Origin: Brachybacterium vulturis
GTDB taxonomy: Bacteria > Actinomycetota > Actinomycetes > Actinomycetales > Dermabacteraceae
Assembly (NCBI RefSeq): GCF_002407185.1
Contig: NZ_CP023563.1
Location: forward strand, 1,612,001-1,676,000
DNA length: 64,000 nucleotides
Direction of reading: 5' to 3'
A program made the position numbers and the translations under genes. Positions 14,150 to 31,984 of the stretch are shown here, piece after piece (position 1 is the first letter of the stretch; each line of letters opens with the position of its first letter). Under the pieces are notes generated by a model. That model made no database searches, had not been told where the DNA came from, and saw only the letters and a program-made list of their open reading frames with translations.

Positions 14150-14155
14150 TACGAT
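14150..14155 (+). promoter_or_regulatory. Candidate -10 of ispH
   Basis: TACGAT, followed 7 nt later by the GTG start at 14163; a weak -35 (TGTCAG, 14127-14132) lies 17 nt upstream. GGGAGG at 14156-14161 is too close to GTG to serve as a Shine-Dalgarno, so a leaderless message is favoured. Confidence 0.45.
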
Positions 14156-14162
14156 GGGAGGC

Positions 14163-15167
14163 GTGAGCACCGGAACAGTCCTTCTTGCCGAGCCGCGCGG
14201 CTACTGCGCGGGAGTCGACCGCGCCGTCGTCGCCGTCGAACGCGCCCTGGAGCACTACGACGAGACGATCTACGTGCGCCACGAGATCGTGCACAACAAA
14301 TTCGTCGTGGACCGCCTGAAGGAGAAGGGCGCCGTGTTCGTCGAGGAGGTCGACGAGATCCCCGAGGGTGCGCTCGTCATCTTCTCCGCCCACGGCATCT
14401 CCCCGAAGGTCCGCGAGATGGCCGAGGAGCGCAACCTGCGCACCATCGACGCCACCTGCCCCCTGGTCACCAAGGTCCACAAGGAGGCGGTGCGCTTCGC
14501 CCGCCAGGACTACGACATCCTGCTGGTGGGCCACACGGGCCACGAGGAGGTCGAGGGCACCGCCGGCGAGGCCCCCGATCACGTGCAGGTCGTCAACTCT
14601 CCCGATGACGTCGACAAGGTGACCGTCCGCGACCCCGAGCGGGTCGTGTGGCTCTCGCAGACCACCCTGAGCGTCGACGAGACGATGGAGACGGTCGACA
14701 AGCTCCGCGAGCGCTTCCCGACGCTGCAATCCCCGCCCAGCGACGACATCTGCTACGCCACCCAGAACCGTCAGGTCGCGATCAAGAAGATCGCCCCGGA
14801 CGCGGATCTGGTGCTGGTGGTGGGCTCGCCGAACTCCTCGAACTCCGTGCGACTGATGGAGGTCGCCAAGGAGGCCGGGGCCAGGGCCTCCCACCGCATC
14901 GACTCGGTCCACGAGCTGCGCGACGAGTGGTTCGATGGCGTCGGGACCGTGGGCGTGACCTCCGGTGCGTCGGTGCCGGACGTCCTGGTCCAGCAGCTGC
15001 TGAATGTCCTCGCCGAGCGCGGCTACGGGGACGTGAAGCCGGTGCGCACCGCCACCGAGGACCTCATGTTCTCCCTCCCGCGCGAGCTGCGCCAGGAGAT
15101 GAAGAACCGCGGCGCCGTCGACAGCCGCACGAAGCCGACCGGCCAGGCCGCCACCGCGGAGTCCTGA
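14163..15167 (+). CDS. ispH: 4-hydroxy-3-methylbut-2-enyl diphosphate reductase
   Basis: 334 aa from GTG 14163 (an in-frame ATG at 14154 is possible). The last enzyme of the MEP isoprenoid pathway, giving IPP and DMAPP. The three iron-sulfur cluster cysteines are visible in [23 protein letters not shown] and [13 protein letters not shown]. The substrate-site motifs [18 protein letters not shown] and [15 protein letters not shown] are intact. This gene is the left flank of the Wadjet insertion, and a hairpin terminator follows at once. Confidence 0.97.
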
Positions 15168-15196
15168 GGCCGGCGGGTCCCTACGGGCCGTCGGCC
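15168..15196 (+). terminator. Terminator hairpin after ispH
   Basis: Beginning at the last base of the TGA stop region, GGCCGGCGGGTCCC pairs with GGGCCGTCGGCC across a TAC loop (one mismatch, a 2-nt bulge). It insulates ispH from the jetA operon. Confidence 0.6.
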
Positions 15197-15261
15197 GCCG
15201 CCGCCCTGCTGTTCATCGAAGGGCTCGAGAAGCGTCAGAGCCCCGTGGCAGGATCGGAGGC

Positions 15262-16938
15262 ATGAAAGATCCCGCGCCCGATACGGAGTCAGAGGCCGGC
15301 ACCTCCCGCGCCGAGAGCGGACCGGTCGACTACGGACCCTTCGCGTATCTCAGCACACCCAACGCCGCGCTGTACCGGCGCATCATGCGGGTGCTGATGG
15401 CTGAGAAGGAGAGGTTCACGGTCCACGTCCGTCCCGAGCAGGTATCCGCCGCGCTCGCACGCGACGGCGCCGATCCCGTCGAGGAGGACATGGTCGGCGA
15501 GGCGTTGGAGAGGCTGGCCCAGCCGGCATGGGGCAATCTGCTCGGCTTCCCCGACTCGAGCCGCGTCACGGCGCTGGAGGACTTCTATCGGCGGCGGATG
15601 CTGTACCAGCTCTCGCACGAGGGTGAGGCGGCGGAGCGTGCCCTGGTCCAGTACGACGCTGCGCTCGGCACTCGGGGCGCGCTCCAGTCGGTCGCGCTGG
15701 AGGACATCGTGGTGCTCCTGACCAATCTCCGCGACACCGTCAGCGCCCAGGAGGCCGACCGGCCGGTGGACGCGGCCGTCGCTCACCAGACGCTGCGCAG
15801 CCTGCGGGAACGATTCGTCGAACTGGCCGAGAACGCCATGGCCTTCATGGGATCGATGCAGCGCACCATCGACCTGCACGACGCGGATGTCGAGGCCTTC
15901 CTCGCCTACAAGGAAGAGCTCATCGCCTATCTGGAGCGGTTCATCCATGATCTGCTCACCCGCGGCGCCCGGATCAGCGAGCTGCTCGACGCGATCCCGG
16001 AGGAGGGCGTGCACTTCCTCGCCGGCCTCGCCGCAGACCGTGAATCGGCCGATGCCGCGCCGGGAGCGGCGCAGGTCGAACGCGCACGGATCCGCCGCAC
16101 ATGGCTGCGGCAGTGGTCGGGCCTGGCCGAATGGTTCGTCAGCACGCCCGTGCGGGAGAGCGAGGCGAAGCTGCTGCGGGCCCGTGCCCGCGCCGCCATC
16201 CCGGCGCTGCTCGCCGTCGTGCGTGCCCTGCACGAGAGGTCCGGCGGTCGCACCGATCGGACCCAGGACTTCCTCACCCTGGCGACGTGGTTCGCAGCGC
16301 TCCCCGCGGATGAGGACCGGCACCGGCTATGGCGCTCCGCCTTCGGCCTGGCACCGGTGCGGCACCTGAGCCTCACCTCCGCCACCGAGGATGCCTGGGC
16401 GGAGGCCGAGCTGAGCACCACGACCCCATGGGCGCAGGCCCCACCGGTGGAGATCAGCCCGCAGCTGCGGCGGAGCGGATCCTACGAGCGCCGTGGCAGG
16501 GCGACGCGGGTCACCGACCGGACCGAGGCGAAACGGATGCTCGCGGAGCGGGCGCGCCAGGAGGCGGAGCAGACGGCGGCGGCGCGCCGCCGGATCCTCA
16601 CCGCCGGTCCCCGGCCGATGTCCGCCTTCGGCGAGCTCGAGCCCGATGCGTTCCGGCTCTTCCTCGGCCTGCTCGGGGACGCCCTGGCCGCGATGGGGCC
16701 GACGGCCACCACCGCGCAGGTGCACACCTCCGACGGGGAGCTCACGGTCATCCTCACCCGGCTCCCCGGCGCCGCCACCATGGAGATCTCCACGCCGGAC
16801 GGCGAATTCTCCGGGCCCGACCATCTCGTCGACATCGCCTCGACGCTCGACGTCGGCGAGGTCGGCGACGGGTGCCTGCCTGCCGGCGGTGTCGACCCCT
16901 CCGCTCTCGAGGCTCACGCCCGGGAGGTCTGCGCATGA
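15262..16938 (+). CDS. jetA: Wadjet type II JetA (DUF2397, TIGR02677 family)
   Basis: 558 aa from ATG 15262. It has the TIGR02677/DUF2397 opening DYGPFAYLSTPNAALYRRIMRVLMAEKERF and a helical body. From family knowledge, JetA is the kleisin-like subunit that bridges the heads of the SMC-like JetC. Wadjet complexes recognise and cut circular plasmid DNA after loop extrusion. A CAGGAT hexamer at 15249-15254 lies 7 nt upstream; no distinct -35. It is first of four genes, each overlapping the next by 4 nt (ATGA), so subunit synthesis is coupled. Residues ~430-450 are charged and Ala-rich, and the C-terminal ~90 residues are less conserved. Confidence 0.88.
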   Translation: MKDPAPDTESEAGTSRAESGPVDYGPFAYLSTPNAALYRRIMRVLMAEKERFTVHVRPEQVSAALARDGADPVEEDMVGEALERLAQPAWGNLLGFPDSSRVTALEDFYRRRMLYQLSHEGEAAERALVQYDAALGTRGALQSVALEDIVVLLTNLRDTVSAQEADRPVDAAVAHQTLRSLRERFVELAENAMAFMGSMQRTIDLHDADVEAFLAYKEELIAYLERFIHDLLTRGARISELLDAIPEEGVHFLAGLAADRESADAAPGAAQVERARIRRTWLRQWSGLAEWFVSTPVRESEAKLLRARARAAIPALLAVVRALHERSGGRTDRTQDFLTLATWFAALPADEDRHRLWRSAFGLAPVRHLSLTSATEDAWAEAELSTTTPWAQAPPVEISPQLRRSGSYERRGRATRVTDRTEAKRMLAERARQEAEQTAAARRRILTAGPRPMSAFGELEPDAFRLFLGLLGDALAAMGPTATTAQVHTSDGELTVILTRLPGAATMEISTPDGEFSGPDHLVDIASTLDVGEVGDGCLPAGGVDPSALEAHAREVCA

Positions 16939-18182
16939 GCCGCTTGGACATCGCGCCCAGCATCGCGGGCGCACTGGAGGCCCGGGACGCCGAGGGCCGC
17001 CGCCGCGTGCTGCGGGCGCTGCTGGCCCGCCCCGTCCTGCGGGCACAGAGCCACGGCGAGCTGTTCCGCGCGGCCCGCCGCCACGCTGACACGCTGAGGA
17101 CGTGGTTCGAGCGCGAAACCGGATGGCGGCTGGTGCTCGAATCGCAGACCGTCCGCCTGCAGACCTCCTACGTCCCGCACGGGCCCACCGCCGTCGCCGT
17201 CGCCGAGCGGCACCCGGCCCGCGGCCGCAGAGGCGATCCGCCCTTCACCCGGCGCCGGTACGTCCTGCTCTGCCTCGCCCTGGCCGTCCTCGAACGTTCC
17301 GATCCGCAAATCTCCCTCGGACGACTCGCCGAACAGATCATCCTCGCCGCCCGCCAGCCCGGACTGGGCGGTCTGGAGTTCACCCTCGGCACCCGGGAGG
17401 AACGCTCCGATCTGGTCGCGGCGATCCGGCTGCTGCTGGGCTACGGGGTGCTCGCGCGGGTCGCCGGTGACGAGGAGTCCTATGTCGCGGCCGGCGGCGA
17501 CGCGCTGTACGACGTCGACCGCCGGGTGTTGGCGACCATGCTCTCGACCACCCACGGTCCCGGCCTGGTCGGGGCCGCGCTCGGTCCGACGCCCTCGATC
17601 GAGCAGATCGAGACCGCGCTGCACCAGCCGCCCCCGGCATACACGGACGAGGAGACCACCAGGCGCCTGCGTCACGCCGTCACCCGTCGTCTGCTGTGCG
17701 ACCCGGTGGTGTACTACGACGAGCTCCCCGAGGACGAGCGCAGCTATCTCGTCGGCCAGCGCGTCCAGCTGACCCGCCGACTGGCCGCCGCGACCGGGCT
17801 GGTGCCCGAGATGCGCGCGGAAGGCATCGCTCTGGTCGATCCTGAGGACCAGCTCACCGACGTACGGATGCCGGAGCAGGGCACCGACGGGCACGCCACC
17901 TTGCTGCTCGCCGAGCAGCTGGCCGCCTCCGGCCCGGCCGACGTCGCCACCCTGCGACGCCGAGTGAAACGACTGGCCGAGGAGAATGCGACCTACTGGC
18001 GCAGGACGACCCAGGAGCCCGGTGCGGAGACCACGATTGTCACCGGTGCGCTGGACCGGCTGGTGGGCCTGGGGCTGGTACGGGTCACCGGCGAGGGCGC
18101 CGAGGCCCTCGTCGAGCCGTTGCCGGCGCTGCGACGCTTCGCCGTGACCGCCCCGACCATCACGAACAGGAACCCCCGATGA
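16935..18182 (+). CDS. jetB: Wadjet type II JetB (DUF2398, TIGR02678 family)
   Basis: 415 aa from ATG 16935, overlapping the jetA stop. DUF2398/TIGR02678 features: HADTLRTWFERETGWRLVLESQTVRLQ near residue 50, RRYVLLCLALAVLERSDPQISLGRLAEQI, and the late LLCDPVVYYDELPEDERSYL. In Wadjet this subunit plays the KITE-like winged-helix part that binds JetA and the JetC neck. The frame is intact and of normal length for the family. It ends in an ATGA overlap with jetC. Confidence 0.87.
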   Translation: MSRLDIAPSIAGALEARDAEGRRRVLRALLARPVLRAQSHGELFRAARRHADTLRTWFERETGWRLVLESQTVRLQTSYVPHGPTAVAVAERHPARGRRGDPPFTRRRYVLLCLALAVLERSDPQISLGRLAEQIILAARQPGLGGLEFTLGTREERSDLVAAIRLLLGYGVLARVAGDEESYVAAGGDALYDVDRRVLATMLSTTHGPGLVGAALGPTPSIEQIETALHQPPPAYTDEETTRRLRHAVTRRLLCDPVVYYDELPEDERSYLVGQRVQLTRRLAAATGLVPEMRAEGIALVDPEDQLTDVRMPEQGTDGHATLLLAEQLAASGPADVATLRRRVKRLAEENATYWRRTTQEPGAETTIVTGALDRLVGLGLVRVTGEGAEALVEPLPALRRFAVTAPTITNRNPR

Positions 18183-21100
18183 CCGATACGGATCAGCCCC
18201 CGGTGCCGCAGCCCGACGTGCCGAAGCCCGACGTGCCGAAGCCCGACGTGCCGAAGCCCGATGTGCCGCAGAGCCCCGTGCCGCAGAGCCCTATGCAGGA
18301 GCCCGCCCCGGCCGGAGCGCCGCCGCGCCCCACCTCCGAACGCTGGCAGCCGCTGCGCCTGGGACTGATCGACCTCTTCTACTACGACGATGAACAGTTC
18401 TGGTTCCACGACGGCCGGCTGCTGCTGCGGGGCAACAACGGCACCGGCAAGTCCAAGGTGCTGGCACTGACTCTGCCGTTCCTGCTGGACGGCTCCACCG
18501 CCCCGCGGCGGGTGGAACCGGATGCGGACCCCAAGAAGCGCATGGACTGGAACCTGCTGCTGGGCGGGGCGCACCCGCACTCGGAGCGCACCGGCTACTC
18601 ATGGGCCGAGTTCGGACGGGTGGACGCCGACGGCACGGAGCACTTCACGACTCTGGGGATCGGCCTGAAAGCTGCTGCCGGCAGGGGCGTCGTGAAGACC
18701 TGGTGGTTCACCAGCACCCGGCGGATCGGAGATCTCCGCCTCCTGGACGAGAGCCGCATCGTCCTCACGCAGGAACGGCTGCGGGACGAGCTGGCATCCA
18801 CATCAGCCGGTCAGGTCCACACCACCCAGGCGGCCTATCGGCGGGCGGTGGACGAGGCACTGTTCCGGCTGGGGGAGGAGCGCTACGGCGCTCTGATCGA
18901 TCTGCTGATCCAGCTGCGCCAGCCCCAGCTGTCCAAGAAGCCGGACGAGAAGGCCCTGTCCGCGGCGCTGACCGAGGCCCTCGCACCGCTGGACCAGGCG
19001 GTGGTCGCCGATGTCGCCGAGTCGTTCCGGTCACTGGAGGATGAACGCGACGGGATCGCTGCGGCCAAGGACACGCTCGGCGCGGCCGAGGCATTCCTGG
19101 GCCATTACCGGGACTACGCCAAGGTGGCCTCCCGGCGCCACACGACCACGGTGCGGCTGGCGAACTCGGCCTATGAGCAGGCGGGCCGCGACCTCCGTGA
19201 GGCCGAGGAGCAGCTGAGCCGCGCCACGACCGAGGTCGAGCACCTGGCTCGACGCCAGCTCGACGCCGAGGAGCGCCGGAGCACGCTGCAGGGTCAGGAA
19301 CAGGCACTGCAGGCCAGTCCGGAGATGCGCGAGGCCGACCGTCTCGACGAGGCGGATCGCGACGCCAGGGAGGCGGAGCGGAATGCGGCGCAGGCCGGTG
19401 AGGAGGCCCAGCAGGCGGCGGCCACCGCCCGCCGGGAGACCGAGGAGGCCGCCGCGGCGGCACGGCACGTCGAGGCGTCCCGCGCCGACGCCGACCGGCA
19501 CGAGGTCGCTGCGGGCCGGCAGGCAGGTCCCGCCGGACTGCAGCCCGAGCACGCGGACATCGCCGGGGACGAGGAGACCGCCCGGCGGGCCCTGGCCCGG
19601 CGGCGCGAGCGGATCCGGCACGTCCGAGGGCTGATCGAGGCGGCGCAGCGTGCGCGAACGATCGCCGATCACCAGCGGACGGTGCTCGACACGGCCCAGT
19701 CCGAGGAGGCCGAGCGGGCGGAGACGCTGCGGGCCGTGCACGAGCGGGTGGAGACAGCTGTGGCGGCCTACGGGGAGGCGGTCCAGGCGCACCTCGGAGG
19801 CCTGGAGCTGATGGAGCTGGACCGCGGCATCGATGAGCTCTCCGAGCTCTCCCACCACTGGGCACGCAGCGTGGTGGGCACGCCGCCCGTGTCGGCCGCC
19901 CTTGACGCCGCAGCGGCGACGGCCCGTGATCGTATCGGTCGAGAGCGCGCCGCGGCGGCGCACGCGGCCGGGCGGCTGTCCGAGGAGCTGGATGCCGTCC
20001 GCACCCGAATCGCTGAGCTGGAGGCCGGGCGCGCCCCGGAGCCGCCGTCAGCCTCGAGCCGCGACGCCCACCGCCGGGACGACCGGCACGGCGCGCCCCT
20101 GTGGTGGCTGGCCGATTTCGCCGATGCCGTCCCAGAGGGCGACCGGGCCGGAGTGGAGGCCGCCCTGCAATCGGCCGGACTGCTGGACGCCTGGGTGTTC
20201 CCCGATGGGACCATGGCCGCCGACGGGGACGTGGTCCTGGGCCCGGCGGGTCCGGAGTCGACCCCCTCCCTGGCCGAGGTGCTGGTGCCCGCAACCGGTC
20301 CCGAGGAGTCGGTCGGCGCGGAGGCCGTCCGCGCCGTGCTGAGCCGGATCGGATGGGGCGAGGTATCGGGAGCTGGCTGGTGGATCGACGGCCAGGGACG
20401 ATGGGGCGCGGGACCGGCACGAGGGTCCTGGACCAAGGACCGCGCGGAGTACCTCGGTGCCAGTGCGCGCGAGGCGCACCGTCGAGAGCTGCTGGGCGAG
20501 CTCCGCGGTCGGGCCGCGGAGCTGGAGACCGAGTGCACGGCTCTCGCGGACCGGGTCGCCGCGGCGGATGAACAGACCCGGCAGGTCGAGCGGGAGCGAG
20601 CCGGATACCCAGCTGCCCGGGAGCGCGAGCTGAGCTCAGTCCATGATCGCGCCGTGGCCGCGCAGCAGGAAGCGGACCTGGCGCAGGCCAAGGTCGATGC
20701 GGCCCTGACCGTCTGGGAACGGGCGGCTGACGCCGCCGACTGGGAGGCCCGGGAGCTCGATGAGCAGGCCTGGGAGCTCGGAGTGGGCACCACGACTGCC
20801 CAGACCGATGACGCGCTGGCCGCCGTGAGCGCGTACGAGGTGACTCTCGTGGAGGTACGGCGGGCAGCACGCGCGGTCGTCGATGCGGCCACCGCGCAGG
20901 AACGGGCCGACCGCCGCGCCGCCGAGGCGACCGCGCTCCAGGAGCGTCGAGAGGTGACCCATCGGGACCTGCGCACCCGGGCGGCGGCCGGGCGCGCGAG
21001 ATACCAGGCCCTTCATGAGACCGTCGGCGCATCGGTGGCCGAGCTCCAGGCCCGGCTCGGCGAGGCCACCGCCGCGCTGGAGGCCACGGCCGCGGAGCTG

Positions 21101-22387
21101 AAGACGGTCGGCACGGAGCAGCTGACCGCCGCGAGCACCCAGGGGCGCCTGGAGGAGAACGTCCGCGACCTCGGCCGGCGTCGTGGCGAGATGGCAGCGG
21201 AGCGTGAAGGGACGATCGAGGCCCTGCGAGCGTTCGCCGAGACCGGATTGCTGCGCGTGGCATTGCCGGACCTCGCCTTGCCGGCCGCCGAGGACCCCGA
21301 GGGATGGAGCCTCACCGCCGGCCTGGGGCTGGCTCGCAGTGCCGAGCAACATCTGCACGAGATCGCGGAGACCGACGAGGCCTGGGCGAGCGTTCAGCAA
21401 CGGGTCTCCGGCGCGACCACGGAGCTCTCCCAGCAGATGAGTCGGCACGGGCACACCGCCTTCACGGAGCAGCGCGGCGACGTGCTCCTGGTCCGGGTGC
21501 GGTGGGTGCACGAGGAGGTGGACATCGACCACCTGGTCGAGCGACTGGACCAGGACGTCACCGACCGTGAACGGTTGCTCAGCGCCCGTGAGCGAGAGAT
21601 CCTCGAGAATCATCTGGTCAATGAGGTGGCGGGTCACCTGCATGAGCTGCTGCTCACCGCCGAGGGGCAGATCGACCGGATGAACCGCGAACTCGCCGAA
21701 CGCAGGACGTCCACCGGGATGCAGCTGCGGGTGCGGTGGCGCGAGCATGGCGACGCCCCTGCCGGACTGGCAGCGGCGCGAAGGCTGATGCTGCGCTCCG
21801 ACGCCACCTGGACTCCGGAGGACCGCACTGCGATCGGCGAGTTCCTCCAGGCCCGGATCGCCGAGATCCGGCAGTCCGACCCGACCGGGGCGTGGCAGGA
21901 GCACCTGGAGCAGGCGCTGGACTACCGGAAGTGGCACACCTTCGTCGTCGAACGGCGACAGAACGGCCACTGGCGCTCGGCCTCCGGGCCCGCGTCCGGC
22001 GGGGAGAGGGCGCTGGCCGTGTCGGTGCCGCTGTTCGCTGCGGCCTCCGCGCACTACAACTCCGCGAGCGACCACGCCCCACGGCTCATCCTGCTCGACG
22101 AGGCCTTCGCCGGCATCGACGACGACTCGCGCGCCAAGTCGCTGGGCCTGCTCGCGACCTTCGATCTCGACGTCGTGATGACCAGTGAGCGGGAGTGGGG
22201 GTGCTACCCCGAGGTGCCCGGTCTCTCGATCGCGCAGCTGTCCCGGATCGAGGGGATCGACGCGGTGGGCGTGACCCGTTGGCGCTGGGACGGCCGGCGC
22301 CGACACCGCCAGAGCGAGGTGGCAGACTCCGCCCGCGCCGGTGCCCGCACGCCGCCGACCTCCGACGGCGAGACCCTGTTCGGATGA
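18179..22387 (+). CDS. jetC: Wadjet type II JetC, SMC-like ATPase (TIGR02680 family)
   Basis: 1402 aa. Walker A LLRGNNGTGKSK lies near residue 85. Long Ala/Glu-rich coiled coils flank a central hinge-like region (~600-770) containing the conserved PLWWLADFADAVPEGDRAGVEAAL. ABC signature ASGGERALAVS lies near residue 1274 and Walker B LILLDEAFAGIDDDSR near 1303. It is the motor of the complex: ATP-driven loop extrusion on DNA. The first ~45 residues are a disordered extension coded by six 15-bp repeats (VPKPD units) not expected in the family, where homology starts at ERWQPLRLGLIDLFYYDD. Start taken at the ATG overlapping the jetB stop. Confidence 0.9.
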   Translation: MTDTDQPPVPQPDVPKPDVPKPDVPKPDVPQSPVPQSPMQEPAPAGAPPRPTSERWQPLRLGLIDLFYYDDEQFWFHDGRLLLRGNNGTGKSKVLALTLPFLLDGSTAPRRVEPDADPKKRMDWNLLLGGAHPHSERTGYSWAEFGRVDADGTEHFTTLGIGLKAAAGRGVVKTWWFTSTRRIGDLRLLDESRIVLTQERLRDELASTSAGQVHTTQAAYRRAVDEALFRLGEERYGALIDLLIQLRQPQLSKKPDEKALSAALTEALAPLDQAVVADVAESFRSLEDERDGIAAAKDTLGAAEAFLGHYRDYAKVASRRHTTTVRLANSAYEQAGRDLREAEEQLSRATTEVEHLARRQLDAEERRSTLQGQEQALQASPEMREADRLDEADRDAREAERNAAQAGEEAQQAAATARRETEEAAAAARHVEASRADADRHEVAAGRQAGPAGLQPEHADIAGDEETARRALARRRERIRHVRGLIEAAQRARTIADHQRTVLDTAQSEEAERAETLRAVHERVETAVAAYGEAVQAHLGGLELMELDRGIDELSELSHHWARSVVGTPPVSAALDAAAATARDRIGRERAAAAHAAGRLSEELDAVRTRIAELEAGRAPEPPSASSRDAHRRDDRHGAPLWWLADFADAVPEGDRAGVEAALQSAGLLDAWVFPDGTMAADGDVVLGPAGPESTPSLAEVLVPATGPEESVGAEAVRAVLSRIGWGEVSGAGWWIDGQGRWGAGPARGSWTKDRAEYLGASAREAHRRELLGELRGRAAELETECTALADRVAAADEQTRQVERERAGYPAARERELSSVHDRAVAAQQEADLAQAKVDAALTVWERAADAADWEARELDEQAWELGVGTTTAQTDDALAAVSAYEVTLVEVRRAARAVVDAATAQERADRRAAEATALQERREVTHRDLRTRAAAGRARYQALHETVGASVAELQARLGEATAALEATAAELKTVGTEQLTAASTQGRLEENVRDLGRRRGEMAAEREGTIEALRAFAETGLLRVALPDLALPAAEDPEGWSLTAGLGLARSAEQHLHEIAETDEAWASVQQRVSGATTELSQQMSRHGHTAFTEQRGDVLLVRVRWVHEEVDIDHLVERLDQDVTDRERLLSAREREILENHLVNEVAGHLHELLLTAEGQIDRMNRELAERRTSTGMQLRVRWREHGDAPAGLAAARRLMLRSDATWTPEDRTAIGEFLQARIAEIRQSDPTGAWQEHLEQALDYRKWHTFVVERRQNGHWRSASGPASGGERALAVSVPLFAAASAHYNSASDHAPRLILLDEAFAGIDDDSRAKSLGLLATFDLDVVMTSEREWGCYPEVPGLSIAQLSRIEGIDAVGVTRWRWDGRRRHRQSEVADSARAGARTPPTSDGETLFG
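18203..18292 (+). repeat. Six 15-bp tandem repeats in the jetC 5' end
   Basis: Units GTGCCGAAGCCCGAC (variants CAG for AAG, later AGCCCC) at 18203, 18218, 18233, 18248, 18263 and 18278. They encode V-P-(K/Q)-P-D / V-P-Q-S-P pentapeptides in frame; gain or loss of units would keep jetC open. Confidence 0.88.
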
Positions 22388-23934
22388 CCGAGGACGGAGC
22401 AGCGGGCAGCCGGCGAGCGGGGGGCGGGGCGGCAGCGCGAGCGGGGGACCGGGCGGCGCTGGACCGATTGCTGGGCGATCCCGCGATGGAATGGCTGGTC
22501 ACCCGGGTGCGGAAGCGGATCCCCGGTGCCGGGGAGGCACTGCTGAGCGGGACGGTCCAGCTCAGCGGACCCACGGCTGAGCAGCGAGCTGCCGCCGTGC
22601 GAGTGGTGGGACCGCCGCGACGAGCCGGGACCGCGCTGCGGGTGGATCTGGCCGTCGTCGAGGAGATCCTGCGGCGCGGCCCCTGGCCCGCGGGCCTGGC
22701 TGACGCCGTCGAGACCCTCACCGGACCGGTGGTCGACCGCCGGGTCCAGCAGGTCCGGGAGACGGCCGCATGGGAAGCGGCCCGTGATCGGCTGGCCCCG
22801 GTGATCGCGCATTTCCCGAGGCTTGCCCGGTGGTGGGGGCCCTGGTGCGCAGCCGGCGGCCTGAAGCGGGTCACCTCAACCGAAGCGGCCCGGATCGGTG
22901 CTCCGGTCACCCCGGCGCTGGGCGCGGACCTGGTGAGCAGGGCGGCAGCGGTAATGGACCGGTTGCCGGCCGTGCAGCAGCCGCTCCCGGTCCTCGCCCG
23001 GGAGACGATGGGCGATGCGCACGGTCTGGATGCGGACCGGCCCCTGGGCCGGCTGATGGTCGCGGTGGCCAGGGCGGCGTTCATGCCCGACGCGGAACCC
23101 GAGGAACTGTCCCGGCGTGATGTCTGGGCGTCGGCCGGAGTCATGCTGTCCACGGTCTCCTCGACCGCCCTGGTCCTGGGAGTGGCCGGCGCGTCCTCGC
23201 CCGATCCCGGCTACGGTGCTCGGAGGGCGAGAGCCGCGACGGCGACGGCGACGTCCTTGGAGGCGATGCGGGAAGCGCGCATTCCGCTGGTGCTGACACT
23301 TGATCAGGTGCGTTCGGGGGGAGTGCGGGCGATGCCGCGAGGCAGCGTCGTCCATGCCTGCGAGAACCCGACCATCGTCGAGGTGGTGGCCGAACGCTGG
23401 GCCCGCCAGCGCGCCGAAGCCGAGCGCGAGGCGGCTTCCACCGGCGGACAGCCCGATGAGGCCCTCGGCGACGCCGCGGGACCGGTGCTGGTGTGCATCT
23501 CGGGCCAGCCGAGCGCGGCCGTGGTCGAGCTGCTGCAGATCCTGACCGCCGAGGGGGCGGCGCTGCGGTATCACGGCGACTTCGACTGGGCCGGACTGCG
23601 GATCGCACGGAGCCTTCTCACGCAGGTGGAGTGGGTGCCGTGGCGCTTCACGGCCACGGACTATGTGCAGGTCGTGCGGGAGGGGCGACCCTCGCGGGAC
23701 CTGACGGGGAGACCGGCGCTGTCGCCGTGGGATCCGCACTTGGCGGAGGTGATGGTCGAGTGGGACCTCGCGGTCGAGGAGGAGGCGGTGGCGGACCTGC
23801 TGGCGACCGACGTGATCGGTCCGGAAACGCTCAGCCGACGCGGTCCTCGGGCTCGGAGCGAGTCGTCGGCCGCGGTGCCGGGGCGGCCAGCTCGGCGATC
23901 TCCGTCTCGTCCAGGGTGCGTGCCCGGCGGGTGA
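22384..23934 (+). CDS. jetD: Wadjet type II JetD, Toprim nuclease subunit (DUF2399/DUF3323, TIGR02679 family)
   Basis: 516 aa from the ATG overlapping the jetC stop. The N-terminal DUF3323 part is followed by a C-terminal topoisomerase VI-like Toprim domain: CENPTIVEVVAERW near residue 327 supplies the metal-binding Glu, VLVCISGQPSAAVVELL follows, and YHGDFDWAGLRIA near 396 supplies the Asp-x-Asp pair. These residues cut DNA in characterised Wadjet nucleases. The last ~34 residues (after about 23831) are antisense to the rmuC 3' end and are Arg/Pro/Ser-rich, so the original jetD terminus may have been replaced at the insertion junction. The catalytic core is intact. Confidence 0.87.
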   Translation: MTEDGAAGSRRAGGGAAARAGDRAALDRLLGDPAMEWLVTRVRKRIPGAGEALLSGTVQLSGPTAEQRAAAVRVVGPPRRAGTALRVDLAVVEEILRRGPWPAGLADAVETLTGPVVDRRVQQVRETAAWEAARDRLAPVIAHFPRLARWWGPWCAAGGLKRVTSTEAARIGAPVTPALGADLVSRAAAVMDRLPAVQQPLPVLARETMGDAHGLDADRPLGRLMVAVARAAFMPDAEPEELSRRDVWASAGVMLSTVSSTALVLGVAGASSPDPGYGARRARAATATATSLEAMREARIPLVLTLDQVRSGGVRAMPRGSVVHACENPTIVEVVAERWARQRAEAEREAASTGGQPDEALGDAAGPVLVCISGQPSAAVVELLQILTAEGAALRYHGDFDWAGLRIARSLLTQVEWVPWRFTATDYVQVVREGRPSRDLTGRPALSPWDPHLAEVMVEWDLAVEEEAVADLLATDVIGPETLSRRGPRARSESSAAVPGRPARRSPSRPGCVPGG

Positions 23935-25045
23935 GCTGTTCAACCTCGTCCAGCGCCGTGCCCGCCATCCCCAGCTCCTCGAAGCGGCGTGCGGTGACCA
24001 TCACCCGCGACTGCAGGGAGCCCACCGCCTCGTTGAACGCGGCGACCGAGGAGTCCAGCGAACGGCCCACCTTGCCCAGGTGGGAGGTGAAGGTGCCCAG
24101 TCGGTGGTGCAGCTCGCGGCCGGCGTCGAGCACCTCGCGGGCGTCGCGGTTCAGGGCGTCGGTGCGCCAGGTATGGGCGACGGTGCGCAGCAGAGCGACC
24201 AGGGTGGCGGGGGAGGCGATCACCACGTCCCGGGCGAAGGCGTCCTCCAGCAGCGCCGGATCGGTCTCCAGCGCCGCGGCCAGCACCCCGTCGCTGGGCA
24301 CGAACAGCACCGTGAACTCCGGGGTGTCCCCGAGCGCCTTCCAGTACCCCTTGGCCGAGAGCACGCCCACGTGGTGCCGCAGCGCCTTGGCGTGAGCCTT
24401 CCGCCGGGCCGCGGCGCGCTGGGGATCGAGCTCCTCGGTGGCGTCGAGGTAGGCGTCCATCGGCGCTTTCGCATCGATCACCACCTGCCGGTCCCCGGCC
24501 AGGTGCACCACCAGGTCGGGGCGCTGTCCGTGCTCGCCGTCGGCCCGGGTGCCGGCAGTCTGCTCGGAGAAGTCGACGTGCTCGAGCATCCCCGCGGCCT
24601 CGACGATGCGCCGCAGCTGCACCTCGCCCCAGCGGCCCCGGGCGGTGGGCGCCCGCAGCGCGGCCGTGAGCGCGCTGGTGCCGGTCTCCAGGGACTGGGC
24701 GCGCTGGGCGAGCTGTGCGAGATGGGAGCGCAGCGCCCCCTCGGCATCGATCCGAGCGGCCTCCGAGCGGGCCAGGGACTGCTCCAGATGGGTGAGGGTC
24801 GCCGTGATGGGCGCCAGGGTGCGCTGCAGCTCGGCCTCCCGCTCCTCCTCGGCGGCGTCGCGCCGGGCGGTGTCCCGCTCGTACCGCTCATCGGCCAGAC
24901 GCAGCAGCTGCGCGGAGGCATCCGCCGCGGTGCGCCGGCGCAGTTCGGCGACGCGCGCACGCTCGCGCAGCAGCAGCCAGGTCAGGACGGCGCCGAGCGC
25001 CGCGCCCAGGAGCATGCCCAGCAGGAGTCCCGATGTTCCGCTCAT
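23831..25045 (-). CDS. rmuC: DNA recombination protein RmuC homologue
   Basis: 404 aa from ATG 25045 (MSGTSGLLLGMLLGAALGAVLTWLLL). An N-terminal membrane anchor precedes a coiled coil (residues ~30-130) and the RmuC domain: RGRWGEVQLRRIVEAAGM, DLVVHLAGDRQVVIDAKAPMDAY, SAKGYWKAL, TVLFVPSDGVLAAAL and VVIASPATLVALLRTVAHTW. The fold is PD-(D/E)XK-like; in E. coli it limits inversions between short inverted repeats. It overlaps the convergent jetD gene by 104 nt. I believe rmuC next to ispH/ychF is common in Micrococcales, which makes it the right flank of the Wadjet insertion. Confidence 0.93.
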   Translation of the reverse strand: MSGTSGLLLGMLLGAALGAVLTWLLLRERARVAELRRRTAADASAQLLRLADERYERDTARRDAAEEEREAELQRTLAPITATLTHLEQSLARSEAARIDAEGALRSHLAQLAQRAQSLETGTSALTAALRAPTARGRWGEVQLRRIVEAAGMLEHVDFSEQTAGTRADGEHGQRPDLVVHLAGDRQVVIDAKAPMDAYLDATEELDPQRAAARRKAHAKALRHHVGVLSAKGYWKALGDTPEFTVLFVPSDGVLAAALETDPALLEDAFARDVVIASPATLVALLRTVAHTWRTDALNRDAREVLDAGRELHHRLGTFTSHLGKVGRSLDSSVAAFNEAVGSLQSRVMVTARRFEELGMAGTALDEVEQLTRRARTLDETEIAELAAPAPRPTTRSEPEDRVG

Positions 25046-25173
25046 GGTCACAGCACACCACGGGGGTGGGACGGACGACCGTCGCCACGCCCGCGGCGGA
25101 ACGCCGCCGTCGGCCGACGGTGAGGCATTCTGTGTGACACGCGAGGATGAGGGGAACCGATGGGGAGCAGCAG

Positions 25174-25962
25174 ATGACCGGTGCGCGCGGTGCGCGCGGT
25201 CCGTCCGGGGGCCGGCGGATCGGCCGACGGATCGGGCAGATGCTGCTGGCCCTGCTGCTGGTGTTCCTGCTGATCTGGGGGCTGCTGTTCCTGCGCGCCC
25301 TGGTGCTGCGGCCGCATGCCGCCCAGCAGGAGGCCACTGCGGGCCTGGAGTGGGCTCGGGCAGAGCTCGCCGGGCTGAGCGCAGAGGACGCCGCGGCACT
25401 GGATGCGGAGTTCGGGCAGCGGCTGGGCACCACACGGACGGTGCACTGCGGAGTGGAGCCCTCGGATGCGGGGTGGTGGACGGTGGACCATCGCAACACC
25501 TGCACGCTGCGGGAGATCGAGGTGCGCGCCGTGCCCGCGGCGATGGAGGAGCCGGCCGGAGTCGCGACGGCACTGCTGGCCGACGTCTCGGCATGGCAGG
25601 GGGAGCCCGCGTACCTGGTGGTCCCGGACCCGCGCTGCGATCCCGCGGCGGAGGCCCGGGTGGAAGCCGATGCGCAGTCCGCGCCCTTTCGCTCGGACAT
25701 CGACCTCGCCGCCGTCGTGGTCGAGGGCCTTCCGGCGCTGCGCGAGGGTTGTCTGGACGAGCCCGGGCCCAGCCATCGTGCTGTCGGTGCGGTGAGCCTC
25801 GAGCTGCCGGAGTCCGCACCGCCCGCGGAGGGTGCGGGAGCCCGCCTGGTGGTGGTGCGGGAGGCGCGGCTGAGCGATACCTCTCTGGGATGCCTGCCGC
25901 TGCCGATCTTCTGCCAGCCGGCGGTCGATGAGCCGCAGCTCCCCGACGCCCTGAAGGGGTGA
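25174..25962 (+). CDS. Membrane-anchored protein of unknown function
   Basis: 262 aa from ATG 25174, chosen for GGGGAG about 8 nt upstream; an in-frame ATG at 25147 is the alternative. A basic N-terminus (RGARGPSGGRRIGRRIG) is followed by one long hydrophobic helix (MLLALLLVFLLIWGLLFLRALVL), then an extracytoplasmic domain of ~210 residues with at least six cysteines (TVHCG, NTCTL, DPRCD, EGCLD, LGCLP, IFCQP), suggesting three disulfides. I do not recognise the family. It lies between rmuC (divergent) and ychF. A hairpin overlaps its stop codon. Confidence 0.7.
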   Translation: MTGARGARGPSGGRRIGRRIGQMLLALLLVFLLIWGLLFLRALVLRPHAAQQEATAGLEWARAELAGLSAEDAAALDAEFGQRLGTTRTVHCGVEPSDAGWWTVDHRNTCTLREIEVRAVPAAMEEPAGVATALLADVSAWQGEPAYLVVPDPRCDPAAEARVEADAQSAPFRSDIDLAAVVVEGLPALREGCLDEPGPSHRAVGAVSLELPESAPPAEGAGARLVVVREARLSDTSLGCLPLPIFCQPAVDEPQLPDALKG

Positions 25963-26023: not shown

Positions 26024-27109
26024 GTGGCTCTTACTATCGGAATCGTGGGACTGCCCAACGTCGGCAAGTCCACCCTCTTCAACGCCCTGACCCGCGCCGA
26101 GGTCCTCGCCGCGAACTACCCGTTCGCGACGATCGATCCCAACATCGGCATGGTCCCGCTGCCCGACCCGCGGCTCGCCGAGCTCGCGACCGTGTTCGGC
26201 AGCCAGAAGCTGCTGTCGGCGACGGTGTCCTTCGTGGACATCGCCGGCATCGTCAAGGGCGCCAGCGAGGGAGAGGGCCTGGGCAACAAGTTCCTCGCCA
26301 ACATACGCGAGGCCGACGCGATCTGCCAGGTCACCCGCGCATTCGCCGATCCCGACGTGACTCGCGTGGAGGGCTCCGTCTCTCCGTCCGACGACATGGA
26401 GATCATCGCCACCGAGCTGATCCTCGCCGACCTCCAGACCATCGAGAACTCGATGCAGCGACTGGAGAAGGACACCAAGCGCGGCTTGGTCGACCCCGCC
26501 GTGCTGCCGAACGTCATCAAGGCGAAGGCTCTGCTGGAGACCGGAGCAACGCTCTACCAGGGTGCAGAGGGCGCCGGCATCGACGTGGCCGCACTCCGCG
26601 AGCTGCAGCTGATGACCGCCAAGCCCTTCATCTACGTCTTCAACACCGACGAGGAGGGTCTCGCGGACACCGCCTCGCAGCAGGCGCTGCGGAACCTGGT
26701 CGCTCCCGCCGAGGCGATCTTCCTCGATGCGAAGTTCGAGTCCGAGCTGATCGAGCTCGACGAGGACGAGGCCGCCGAGATGCTCGAGTCCACCGGTCAG
26801 GAGGAGTCCGGGCTGGCCCAGCTGGCGCGCGTCGGCTTCGACACCCTGGGCCTGCAGACCTACCTCACCGCCGGTCCCAAGGAATCCCGGGCCTGGACCA
26901 TCCCCAAGGGAGCCACCGCCCCGCAGGCCGCCGGCGTCATCCACACCGATTTCGAGCGCGGCTTCATCAAGGCCGAGATCGTCTCCTTCGACCAGCTCAT
27001 GGAAGCCGGCTCCATGGCCGAGGCCAAGGCCAAGGGCAAGGTGCGCATCGAGGGCAAGGACTACGTGATGCGCGATGGCGACGTGGTGGAGTTCAGGTTT
27101 AACGTCTAG
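26024..27109 (+). CDS. ychF: Redox-/ribosome-associated ATPase YchF (OLA1 family)
   Basis: 361 aa from GTG 26024. G1 loop GLPNVGKSTLFNALT, then the family hallmarks NYPFATIDPNIG, FVDIAGIVKGASEGEGLGNKFL and ADAICQVTRAF. The N-[KT]-x-E-type specificity motif is replaced by FNTDEEG, consistent with ATP rather than GTP preference. The C-terminal TGS domain (QAAGVIHTDFERGFIKAEIV) ends DGDVVEFRFNV. The gene is complete. Its 3' end is the sequence echoed by three repeats downstream, and a TA module starts immediately after its stop. Confidence 0.97.
   Translation: MALTIGIVGLPNVGKSTLFNALTRAEVLAANYPFATIDPNIGMVPLPDPRLAELATVFGSQKLLSATVSFVDIAGIVKGASEGEGLGNKFLANIREADAICQVTRAFADPDVTRVEGSVSPSDDMEIIATELILADLQTIENSMQRLEKDTKRGLVDPAVLPNVIKAKALLETGATLYQGAEGAGIDVAALRELQLMTAKPFIYVFNTDEEGLADTASQQALRNLVAPAEAIFLDAKFESELIELDEDEAAEMLESTGQEESGLAQLARVGFDTLGLQTYLTAGPKESRAWTIPKGATAPQAAGVIHTDFERGFIKAEIVSFDQLMEAGSMAEAKAKGKVRIEGKDYVMRDGDVVEFRFNV
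27080..27109 (+). repeat. ychF 3' end: native copy of the repeated sequence
   Basis: Last codons of ychF, ACGTGGTGGAGTTC then AGG TTT AAC GTC TAG, encoding DVVEFRFNV-stop. Related sequence recurs at 28545-28594, 29616-29664 and 30366-30426. The native copy lacks the CCGGAAC arm that makes the first two downstream copies fold into hairpins. Confidence 0.8.
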
Positions 27110-30426: not shown

Positions 30427-30584
30427 GCAGTGCACGGATGCTGTCCTTCCTCCGCGGAAGCCGGCTGGCCGACGCCACATGAGGTATTGCCAGGTGGCTC
30501 AGGCCGTCGGGCCTCATCAGTTCAGATCGGCGGCGGAACGGCCGTGCTGGGGTGAGCAGCCGTGCCTATCGGCACCGTCGCCGG

Positions 30585-30590
30585 TATCCT
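30585..30590 (+). promoter_or_regulatory. Candidate -10 of the MNT/HEPN module
   Basis: TATCCT ends 6 nt before ATG 30597; no Shine-Dalgarno. The rest of 30427-30584 shows no gene. Confidence 0.4.
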
Positions 30591-30596
30591 GGCGGC

Positions 30597-30926
30597 ATGC
30601 CTGAGATCGCCGTGACGCCAGAGACGCTCGCCCTCCGCGAGCTCCTTGACGCGCATCGCGATGAGTTCCTGGCGATCCTGGACCGGTACGGCGCCACCAG
30701 CCCGAAGCTGTTCGGCTCCGTTGCCCGGGGCACCGCCCACCCGGGATCAGACATCGACATCCTGGTCGAGATGGACCCTGCGGAGGGGAATCTGCTCATG
30801 CGGGCCTCCGGGCTGATGGAAGAGACCCGAGCGCTCTTCGGCCGCGACAACATCGACGTGTTCTCCGTCCAGCTGCTCAAGCGGCCGATCTCGGACTCGG
30901 CACTGATCGACGCGGTCGCACTGTGA
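30597..30926 (+). CDS. MNT-type nucleotidyltransferase antitoxin
   Basis: 109 aa from ATG 30597. Minimal nucleotidyltransferase signature KLFGSVARGTAHPGSDIDILVEMD (GSx10DxD) and a later acidic IDVFSVQLLK strand. In HEPN-MNT systems such proteins inactivate the HEPN ribonuclease, often by AMPylation. Its stop overlaps the GTG start of the HEPN gene. Confidence 0.9.
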   Translation: MPEIAVTPETLALRELLDAHRDEFLAILDRYGATSPKLFGSVARGTAHPGSDIDILVEMDPAEGNLLMRASGLMEETRALFGRDNIDVFSVQLLKRPISDSALIDAVAL

Positions 30927-31190
30927 GCCGAGGCCCTGCGCAGCGCATCGCCGATGTCCTCGAGGCCATCGAACGCTGCCGGCGATATGTCGCCGCTCTT
31001 GACGGTGATGCGGACATGGCAGAGATGGCAGAGGACGCGATCGAGCGCAATCTGCAGATCATCGGCGAAGCCGTGAACCATCTCCCCGCCGAGATCACGG
31101 ATGCGCATCCGGACGTCCCCTGGCCGCAGATCCGAGGCTTCCGCAACATCCTCGTCCACCAGTACTTCTATCGCGCCCCGATCCCAGCCC
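30923..31190 (+). pseudogene. HEPN (HepT/DUF86) toxin, 3'-truncated
   Basis: Starts at the GTG inside the MNT stop. Residues 1-82 are a normal HepT-like HEPN domain with ERNLQIIGEAVNHLP and the catalytic R-x4-H motif FRNILVHQYF (Arg74, His79). Immediately after QYF homology stops, and the final ~25 residues of the domain are absent. The frame has no stop of its own: it continues through the vapB region in the wrong frame and runs in phase into vapC, ending at 31984. The end coordinate marks the approximate limit of recognisable or plausible sequence. A functional short toxin is uncertain. Confidence 0.65.
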
Positions 31191-31294
31191 GAATCACAGT
31201 CATGCGCCGCCCCGGTCGCCTCGTCGAGAGGCGGTCGAGGCGGTGTCGTATCGGAGGAGCTGTACAGCATCGGGCGCGAGTCGAGGCAGCGGCG

Positions 31295-31310
31295 CTATCA
31301 TGCTTGATAG
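31295..31310 (+). promoter_or_regulatory. vapBC operator and -10
   Basis: Inverted repeat CTATCA-TGCT-TGATAG; TATCAT (31296-31301) can act as -10. Followed by an exceptionally strong Shine-Dalgarno, AGGAGGTGATC (31314-31324), before ATG 31329. Autorepression by VapB is the likely use. Confidence 0.6.
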
Positions 31311-31328
31311 CAGAGGAGGTGATCGCTG

Positions 31329-31562
31329 ATGTCATCCATCATCGTTCGCGGGCTCGACGAAGCAGTGAAGAAGCGGCTCGCCGCGCAGGCGAAGGAGCAC
31401 GGCCGTTCCATGGAGGCCGAGGTCCGCGAGATCCTGACCCAGGCCTCGCGACGGCCGCACATCGGAATGGCGCTGCTGTCCGCGGCGCAGGATGCCGGCG
31501 GAGTCGAGGACCTGCCGATCGCGAGGCGCGACGACGTCGCACGGTCCGTGGAGTTCGAGTGA
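31329..31562 (+). CDS. vapB: VapB/FitA-type antitoxin
   Basis: 77 aa. N-terminal ribbon-helix-helix SSIIVRGLDEAVKKRLAAQAKEHGRSMEAEVREIL, which binds the operator as a dimer, and a C-terminal VapC-binding tail (DDVARSVEFE). It carries the strongest ribosome binding site seen in the island. The stop overlaps the vapC GTG. Confidence 0.92.
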   Translation: MSSIIVRGLDEAVKKRLAAQAKEHGRSMEAEVREILTQASRRPHIGMALLSAAQDAGGVEDLPIARRDDVARSVEFE

Positions 31563-31984
31563 TCGTCCTCGACACGAACGTCATCTCGGAGATCTTCCGG
31601 CCGTCGCCGGAGGTGCGCGTGGTCGATTGGCTCGCGTCGTTGACGGGTGATGTCGCGATCACGTCCGTCACGCTCGCGGAGCTGCTGGCTGGTGTGCGGC
31701 GACTCCCGGACGGTCGGCGCAAGGATGAGTTGACCAGGCGCATCGAGGTGGCGCTCGAGCCGTATCGGGGGAGTCGCTCGGTGCTTCCGTTCGATGGCTC
31801 GGCGGCCGAACGTTATACCGACGTCCTCGTTGCTCGGGAGAGTGCGGGAGCACCGATCAGCACGGCCGACGCGCAGATCGCCGCGATCTGCCTGACGCAC
31901 GGAGCGACCTGCGCGACGCGCAACGTCAAGGATTTCGCGCATACCGGCATCGAGCTGGTCGACCCGTGGAGCGCCACCGGGTGA
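31559..31984 (+). CDS. vapC: VapC/FitB-type PIN ribonuclease toxin
   Basis: 141 aa from the GTG overlapping the vapB stop. PIN residues: VIVLDTNVISE (first Asp), TSVTLAELLAGVRRLP (Glu), ISTADAQIAAICLTHGATCATRNVKDF (two later Asp). It cleaves structured RNA, often tRNA, with Mg2+. The same frame is open upstream all the way to the HEPN gene at 30923, so a 353-residue HEPN-x-VapC polypeptide is formally possible. Confidence 0.93.
   Translation: MIVLDTNVISEIFRPSPEVRVVDWLASLTGDVAITSVTLAELLAGVRRLPDGRRKDELTRRIEVALEPYRGSRSVLPFDGSAAERYTDVLVARESAGAPISTADAQIAAICLTHGATCATRNVKDFAHTGIELVDPWSATG

What the first reader, a model, noticed from the sequence alone, without database searches (positions are those of the whole stretch)
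15262..23934. Complete type II Wadjet operon inserted in an ancient core gene block
All four subunits are intact with nuclease (Glu, Asp-x-Asp) and ATPase motifs. They are coupled by ATGA overlaps and sit between ispH and rmuC-ychF, a stretch otherwise matching the M. tuberculosis greA-ychF order. Defence genes at both sides of rmuC/ychF (Wadjet left, TA array right) mark this locus as a defence hot spot. Homologous mycobacterial ept genes restrict plasmids, from memory.
Basis: partly seen in the sequence, partly recalled or inferred. Interest (0 to 1): 0.6.

Follow-up and report, generated by a model that had tools for sequence, protein, structure and literature searches.

The report
Type II Wadjet plasmid-defence operon
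This is an ordinary, complete anti-plasmid defence operon (type II Wadjet) that this bacterium alone among its sequenced family carries intact, in a gap between two housekeeping genes that different relatives fill with different, mostly non-defence genes.

Summary
jetA-jetB-jetC-jetD occupy 15262-23934, joined by three 4-base ATGA overlaps. Every subunit scores far above the curated cut-offs for the type II Wadjet families (TIGR02677/78/80/79; PADLOC JetA2-D2), with ATPase and Toprim motifs intact.

The insertion claim also holds. Among 47 family genomes only this one has jetC or jetD; in close relatives ispH and rmuC are adjacent or have other genes between them. JetC groups with Georgenia and Micrococcaceae proteins at 69-73% identity, pointing to horizontal acquisition.

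Corrections: (1) The insertion is not unique: a more distant congener (G015) keeps a broken jetA 5' fragment at this site. (2) The ispH-rmuC gap is a general variable site, not a demonstrated defence hot spot. Congeners hold a VWA-domain protein (9 of 33), transporters, or nothing, and none of the cargo tested is recognised defence. The toxin-antitoxin genes lie at a separate site 3.4 kb beyond ychF, with a relative there in Wadjet-less sister G003. (3) Mycobacterial Ept is MksBEFG (type I), a homologous but different type.

One oddity: the 3' junction replaced jetD's own stop, so JetD reads about 34 codons into antisense rmuC. New member of a known kind; low surprise.

The parts
15262..16938 (+). 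jetA (kleisin-like subunit, DUF2397/TIGR02677, 558 aa)
16935..18182 (+). jetB (KITE-like subunit, DUF2398/TIGR02678, 415 aa)
18179..22387 (+). jetC (SMC-like ATPase, TIGR02680, 1402 aa; proline-rich pentapeptide-repeat N-terminus)
   Evidence: repeat
22384..23934 (+). jetD (Toprim nuclease, DUF3323+DUF2399/TIGR02679, 516 aa; last ~34 codons are antisense rmuC)
23831..23934 (.). overlap of the jetD 3' end with the rmuC 3' end; right insertion junction close to 23831
15168..15261 (+). ispH-jetA intergenic gap (left side of the insertion)
14150..15167 (+). ispH, left flank (start approximate)
23831..25819 (-). rmuC, right flank (ORF limits; true start not determined)
26024..27109 (+). ychF

Best explanation
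A complete, probably functional type II Wadjet operon, acquired horizontally from another actinobacterial lineage and lodged in the tail-to-tail gap between ispH and rmuC. By analogy with characterised Wadjet, JetABC (kleisin, KITE, SMC) loads on DNA and extrudes loops with ATP. On small closed circles extrusion runs to completion and activates the JetD Toprim nuclease, which cuts the plasmid. Shown here: gene content, order, coupling, intact motifs, the empty site in relatives, cross-family phylogeny and a relic in a congener. Inferred: expression, complex formation, plasmid cleavage, and the gap being tolerated because no promoter lies between two converging stop codons.
For: Family membership. 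Motifs. Presence: jetC and jetD in 1 of 47 family genomes, jetA in 1 plus one relic. Empty or otherwise filled site in 32 of 33 congeners examined, one cut by a contig edge. The sister genome G003 (support 0.99) has no jet genes there, only a broken VWA remnant. The JetC tree places it among Georgenia, Micrococcaceae and other rows, and no ispH, rmuC or ychF lies in the stretches held around those operons. TIGR02680 is over cut-off in 19 of 396 genomes of the order. Plasmid restriction by Wadjet: PMC10586767, PMC12287153.
Against: No expression or activity data. JetD carries a ~34-residue non-homologous tail that could impair it. The review read here says most research has been on type I (PMC10586767), so loop-extrusion cleavage is extrapolated to type II. 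No target-site duplication or mobile element marks the route of entry.
Confidence: 0.93

Rival explanations
1. The operon is an old inheritance of the genus at this site, and all sampled lineages but one have lost it; G015 shows the last stage of loss.
For: The G015 relic lies at the same place and shares 22 bp upstream of the jetA start with the window.
Against: No trace in 31 other congener sites, several of which have a VWA gene there instead; it would need many independent losses. JetC nests among other families.
Confidence: 0.25
2. The operon is intact in sequence but not functional, because JetD lost its natural end and carries an antisense-rmuC tail.
For: Homologues end 1-14 residues after the conserved core; this one has about 34 extra codons.
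Against: The TIGR02679 model is complete (positions 4-382) and the catalytic residues are intact. Homologous C-termini vary, and no subunit has a stop or frameshift.
Confidence: 0.12
3. The ispH-rmuC gap is a defence hot spot.
For: Intact Wadjet here, a Wadjet relic in G015, TA genes 3.4 kb past ychF.
Against: Other occupants are VWA proteins and transporters. The TA genes are at a separate site.
Confidence: 0.1

Closest known systems
Type II Wadjet (JetABCD II; TIGR02677-TIGR02678-TIGR02680-TIGR02679)
   Same: All four subunits, order A-B-C-D, overlapping coupling, catalytic motifs, best model match for every subunit
   Different: JetD has a ~34-residue antisense-rmuC tail; JetC has a proline-rich pentapeptide-repeat N-terminus
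Operons of Georgenia ruanii JCM 15130 (L077) and Arthrobacter sp. (L076, L088)
   Same: JetA 78-81%, JetB 81-83%, JetC 69-73% identity, same order
   Different: No ispH/rmuC/ychF nearby in the stretches held; JetD ends normally in L077 and L088 (L076 stops at a contig end)
MksBEFG / EptABCD (corynebacteria, mycobacteria), type I Wadjet
   Same: Same architecture of kleisin, KITE, SMC and Toprim nuclease, and the same anti-plasmid role (literature)
   Different: Different type: the best type I JetC model gives 57 bits against 1349 for type II

Membership tests
Type II Wadjet | JetA of DUF2397/TIGR02677 | tested here: met
   491 bits, cut-off 165.85
Type II Wadjet | JetB of DUF2398/TIGR02678 | tested here: met
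   323.9 bits, cut-off 124.65
Type II Wadjet | SMC-like JetC of TIGR02680 with intact ATPase motifs | tested here: met
   1178 bits, cut-off 462.85; Walker A/B and signature present
Type II Wadjet | JetD of DUF2399/TIGR02679 with Toprim Glu and DxD | tested here: met
   248.6 bits, cut-off 196; E327, D399, D401 invariant
Type II Wadjet | Four genes adjacent in one operon | tested here: met
   Three 4-base overlaps; co-transcription itself not tested
Type II Wadjet | Restriction of small circular plasmids | not testable with these tools
   Needs plasmid transformation or conjugation of a deletion strain
Type I Wadjet (MksBEFG/Ept) | Best match to type I JetA-D models | tested here: not met
   Only weak JetC1 matches, none for the other subunits
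Defence hot spot | Site repeatedly occupied by different defence systems in relatives | tested here: not met
   Occupants tested are VWA proteins, transporters and the like; not every occupant was scanned

The most novel reading that the evidence does not exclude
The same type II Wadjet operon entered, or was exchanged at, precisely this convergent gap in at least two separate lineages of the genus (intact in G000, relic in G015), where other lineages hold a VWA gene. This would make the site an exchange point that works without a transposase, by homologous recombination in the conserved flanks.
Probability: 0.3. Interest if true: 0.3.

Novelty: new member of a known kind. Interest (0 to 1): 0.17.

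Why it matters
It documents gain and decay of a plasmid-defence operon at one defined chromosomal site within a genus, and it may explain differences in plasmid uptake between strains. It adds a rare type II Wadjet carrier in a family that otherwise lacks it. It does not change the understanding of Wadjet.

Tried and rejected
A second type II Wadjet in the genome: jetC has only one match. Of the three other SbcC-Walker-B matches, the one at 1122379 looks like ordinary SbcCD; the other two were not examined. A transposon or integrase route: no flanking inverted or target-site repeats stand out, and no such genes were seen among ten sampled flanking genes of related operons. Transfer of the operon from G015 together with its flanks: no raised identity in the adjacent ispH/rmuC DNA. 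Phage carriage: no JetC match in 50,697 phage records. Plasmid carriage: only distant JetC matches (under 60% identity) on 21 plasmids. A solved JetD relative: none by sequence. A fused HepT-PIN protein at 30923-31984: judged a read-through of a truncated HepT frame into a VapC frame. Structure prediction was not run because membership was already clear.

Full report
WHAT IS THERE. jetA 15262-16938, jetB 16935-18182, jetC 18179-22387 and jetD 22384-23934 are joined by three 4-base overlaps. Each scores well above the NCBIfam cut-off of one member of the type II Wadjet set (TIGR02677, 02678, 02680, 02679), and each has a PADLOC type II subunit as best model (JetA2 E 1.3e-178, JetB2 8e-129, JetC2 0, JetD2 1.9e-108). 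JetC and JetA match chains named JetC and JetA of PDB 9qe0. JetC keeps Walker A, the signature and Walker B. In an alignment of 11 JetD proteins the Glu of CENP (E327) and both Asp of YHGDFDW (D399, D401) are invariant.

SITE AND FLANKS. ispH ends 94 bp upstream on the same strand. rmuC lies downstream on the opposite strand, so the gap is tail-to-tail, and jetD overlaps the 3' end of rmuC by 104 bp. The TIGR02679 model is complete at residue 477, and ten homologous JetD proteins stop 1-14 residues after that point. This JetD instead runs on past the rmuC stop for about 34 codons of antisense rmuC. The simplest reading is that the insertion junction replaced jetD's own stop codon.

IS IT AN INSERTION? 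The genome is a single contig of 3.80 Mb. Among 47 genomes of the family, jetC (TIGR02680) and jetD (TIGR02679) occur only here, although 46 of 47 have rmuC. I fetched the rmuC region of 33 congeners and 7 other family members and mapped them. In 12 congeners ispH and rmuC are within about 300 bp. In four, xseA and rmuC are adjacent because ispH is absent. Nine have a VWA-domain protein of about 670 aa in the gap. Seven have transporters or related genes (ABC, amino-acid permease with Usp, sugar ABC with a phosphatase). One could not be judged because the contig ends there. A tree of flanking genes puts G003 as sister to the window's genome (support 0.99). G003 has no jet genes at the site but keeps a broken piece of the VWA gene. 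The window's copy therefore sits where close relatives have, or had, something else.

A RELIC. In G015, which falls outside the window's well-supported clade, the ispH-rmuC gap holds a decayed 5' piece of jetA with a stop codon and frameshifts. It matches the window at 75% DNA identity over 232 bp, including 22 bp upstream of the jetA start, where operons of other families do not align with it. The flanking DNA shows no sign of exchange with G015. Either the insertion is older and mostly lost, or the same unit entered this gap twice. The data do not decide.

ORIGIN. The nearest JetC proteins are from Georgenia (73%), Arthrobacter (69-71%) and Tersicoccus (69%). The JetC tree nests the window's protein in a supported group of nine rows (98/98) from at least two other families. 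No ispH, rmuC or ychF lies in the stretches held around those operons. In the order as a whole, 19 of 396 sampled genomes pass the TIGR02680 cut-off. This patchiness and cross-family nesting indicate horizontal transfer. Local G+C does not differ from the rest of the window, as expected for a donor of similar G+C. How it entered is unknown.

DEFENCE HOT SPOT? Not supported. The occupants tested with Pfam and PADLOC were not defence systems; the PADLOC matches of one ABC transporter cover mainly its ATPase motifs. The toxin-antitoxin genes (MNT 30552-30926, HepT-like and PIN 30923-31984) lie at a separate place, 3.4 kb past ychF. Relatives of the HepT/PIN frame follow ychF in G003 and several other congeners. 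A tail-to-tail gap without promoters is an ordinary permissive landing place, which would explain the variety of cargo (inference).

HOW IT WORKS. From work on other Wadjets: JetABC is an SMC motor; JetD is a Toprim nuclease; ATP is needed; circles below roughly 50-100 kb are cut and linear DNA is spared (PMC10586767). Deleting a native Wadjet raised plasmid uptake by conjugation in Clostridium cellulovorans (PMC12287153). In Actinobacteria, 42% of genomes encode some Wadjet against 7% elsewhere (PMC10482375), so carrying one is not unusual. For the present operon, function is inferred from intact motifs.

CORE BLOCK. ispH is absent from 16 of 47 family genomes. The same 16 lack ispG and all have HMG-CoA reductase. 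Differences between the MEP and mevalonate pathways within Brachybacterium are already reported (PMC13001223). The tools did not name the genus of the window; Brachybacterium is my inference from genome size, G+C and this pattern.

VERDICT. Real, complete, acquired, and ordinary: a new member of a known kind.

Noticed in passing
ispH site, window 14150-15167, and 47 family genomes: 16 of 47 family genomes lack both IspH and IspG, and all 16 carry HMG-CoA reductase; four more carry both routes, including the sister G003. This looks like repeated MEP-to-mevalonate switching; pathway differences within Brachybacterium are already reported (PMC13001223).
   Followed up: partly
L050:6799-8811, L074 and 7 other congeners at ispH-rmuC; remnant in L057: A 635-760 aa VWA-domain protein, with what looks like a signal sequence and a C-terminal membrane segment, is the commonest occupant of the ispH-rmuC gap; it has decayed to a short remnant in G003.
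   Followed up: partly
window 30923-31984: One open frame with a HepT-like domain (RNILVHQYF) and a PIN domain; probably a truncated or frameshifted HepT read through into a VapC gene rather than a real fusion, directly downstream of an MNT gene (30552-30926).
   Followed up: partly
window 18195-18284: A 15-bp tandem repeat codes proline-rich pentapeptides in the JetC N-terminal tail, outside the conserved domain; the copy number may vary between strains.
   Followed up: no
PLSDB plasmids: The 12 listed plasmids that carry distant JetC homologues are all very large (0.38-2.8 Mb), in keeping with Wadjet sparing large replicons; nine records were not listed.
   Followed up: no
L070:3745-8457 and L072:3322-8019: In another genus of the family a 1565-1570 aa protein (lamin-tail and calcineurin-like phosphoesterase domains in L070) sits between xseA and rmuC, at the same place.
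   Followed up: no
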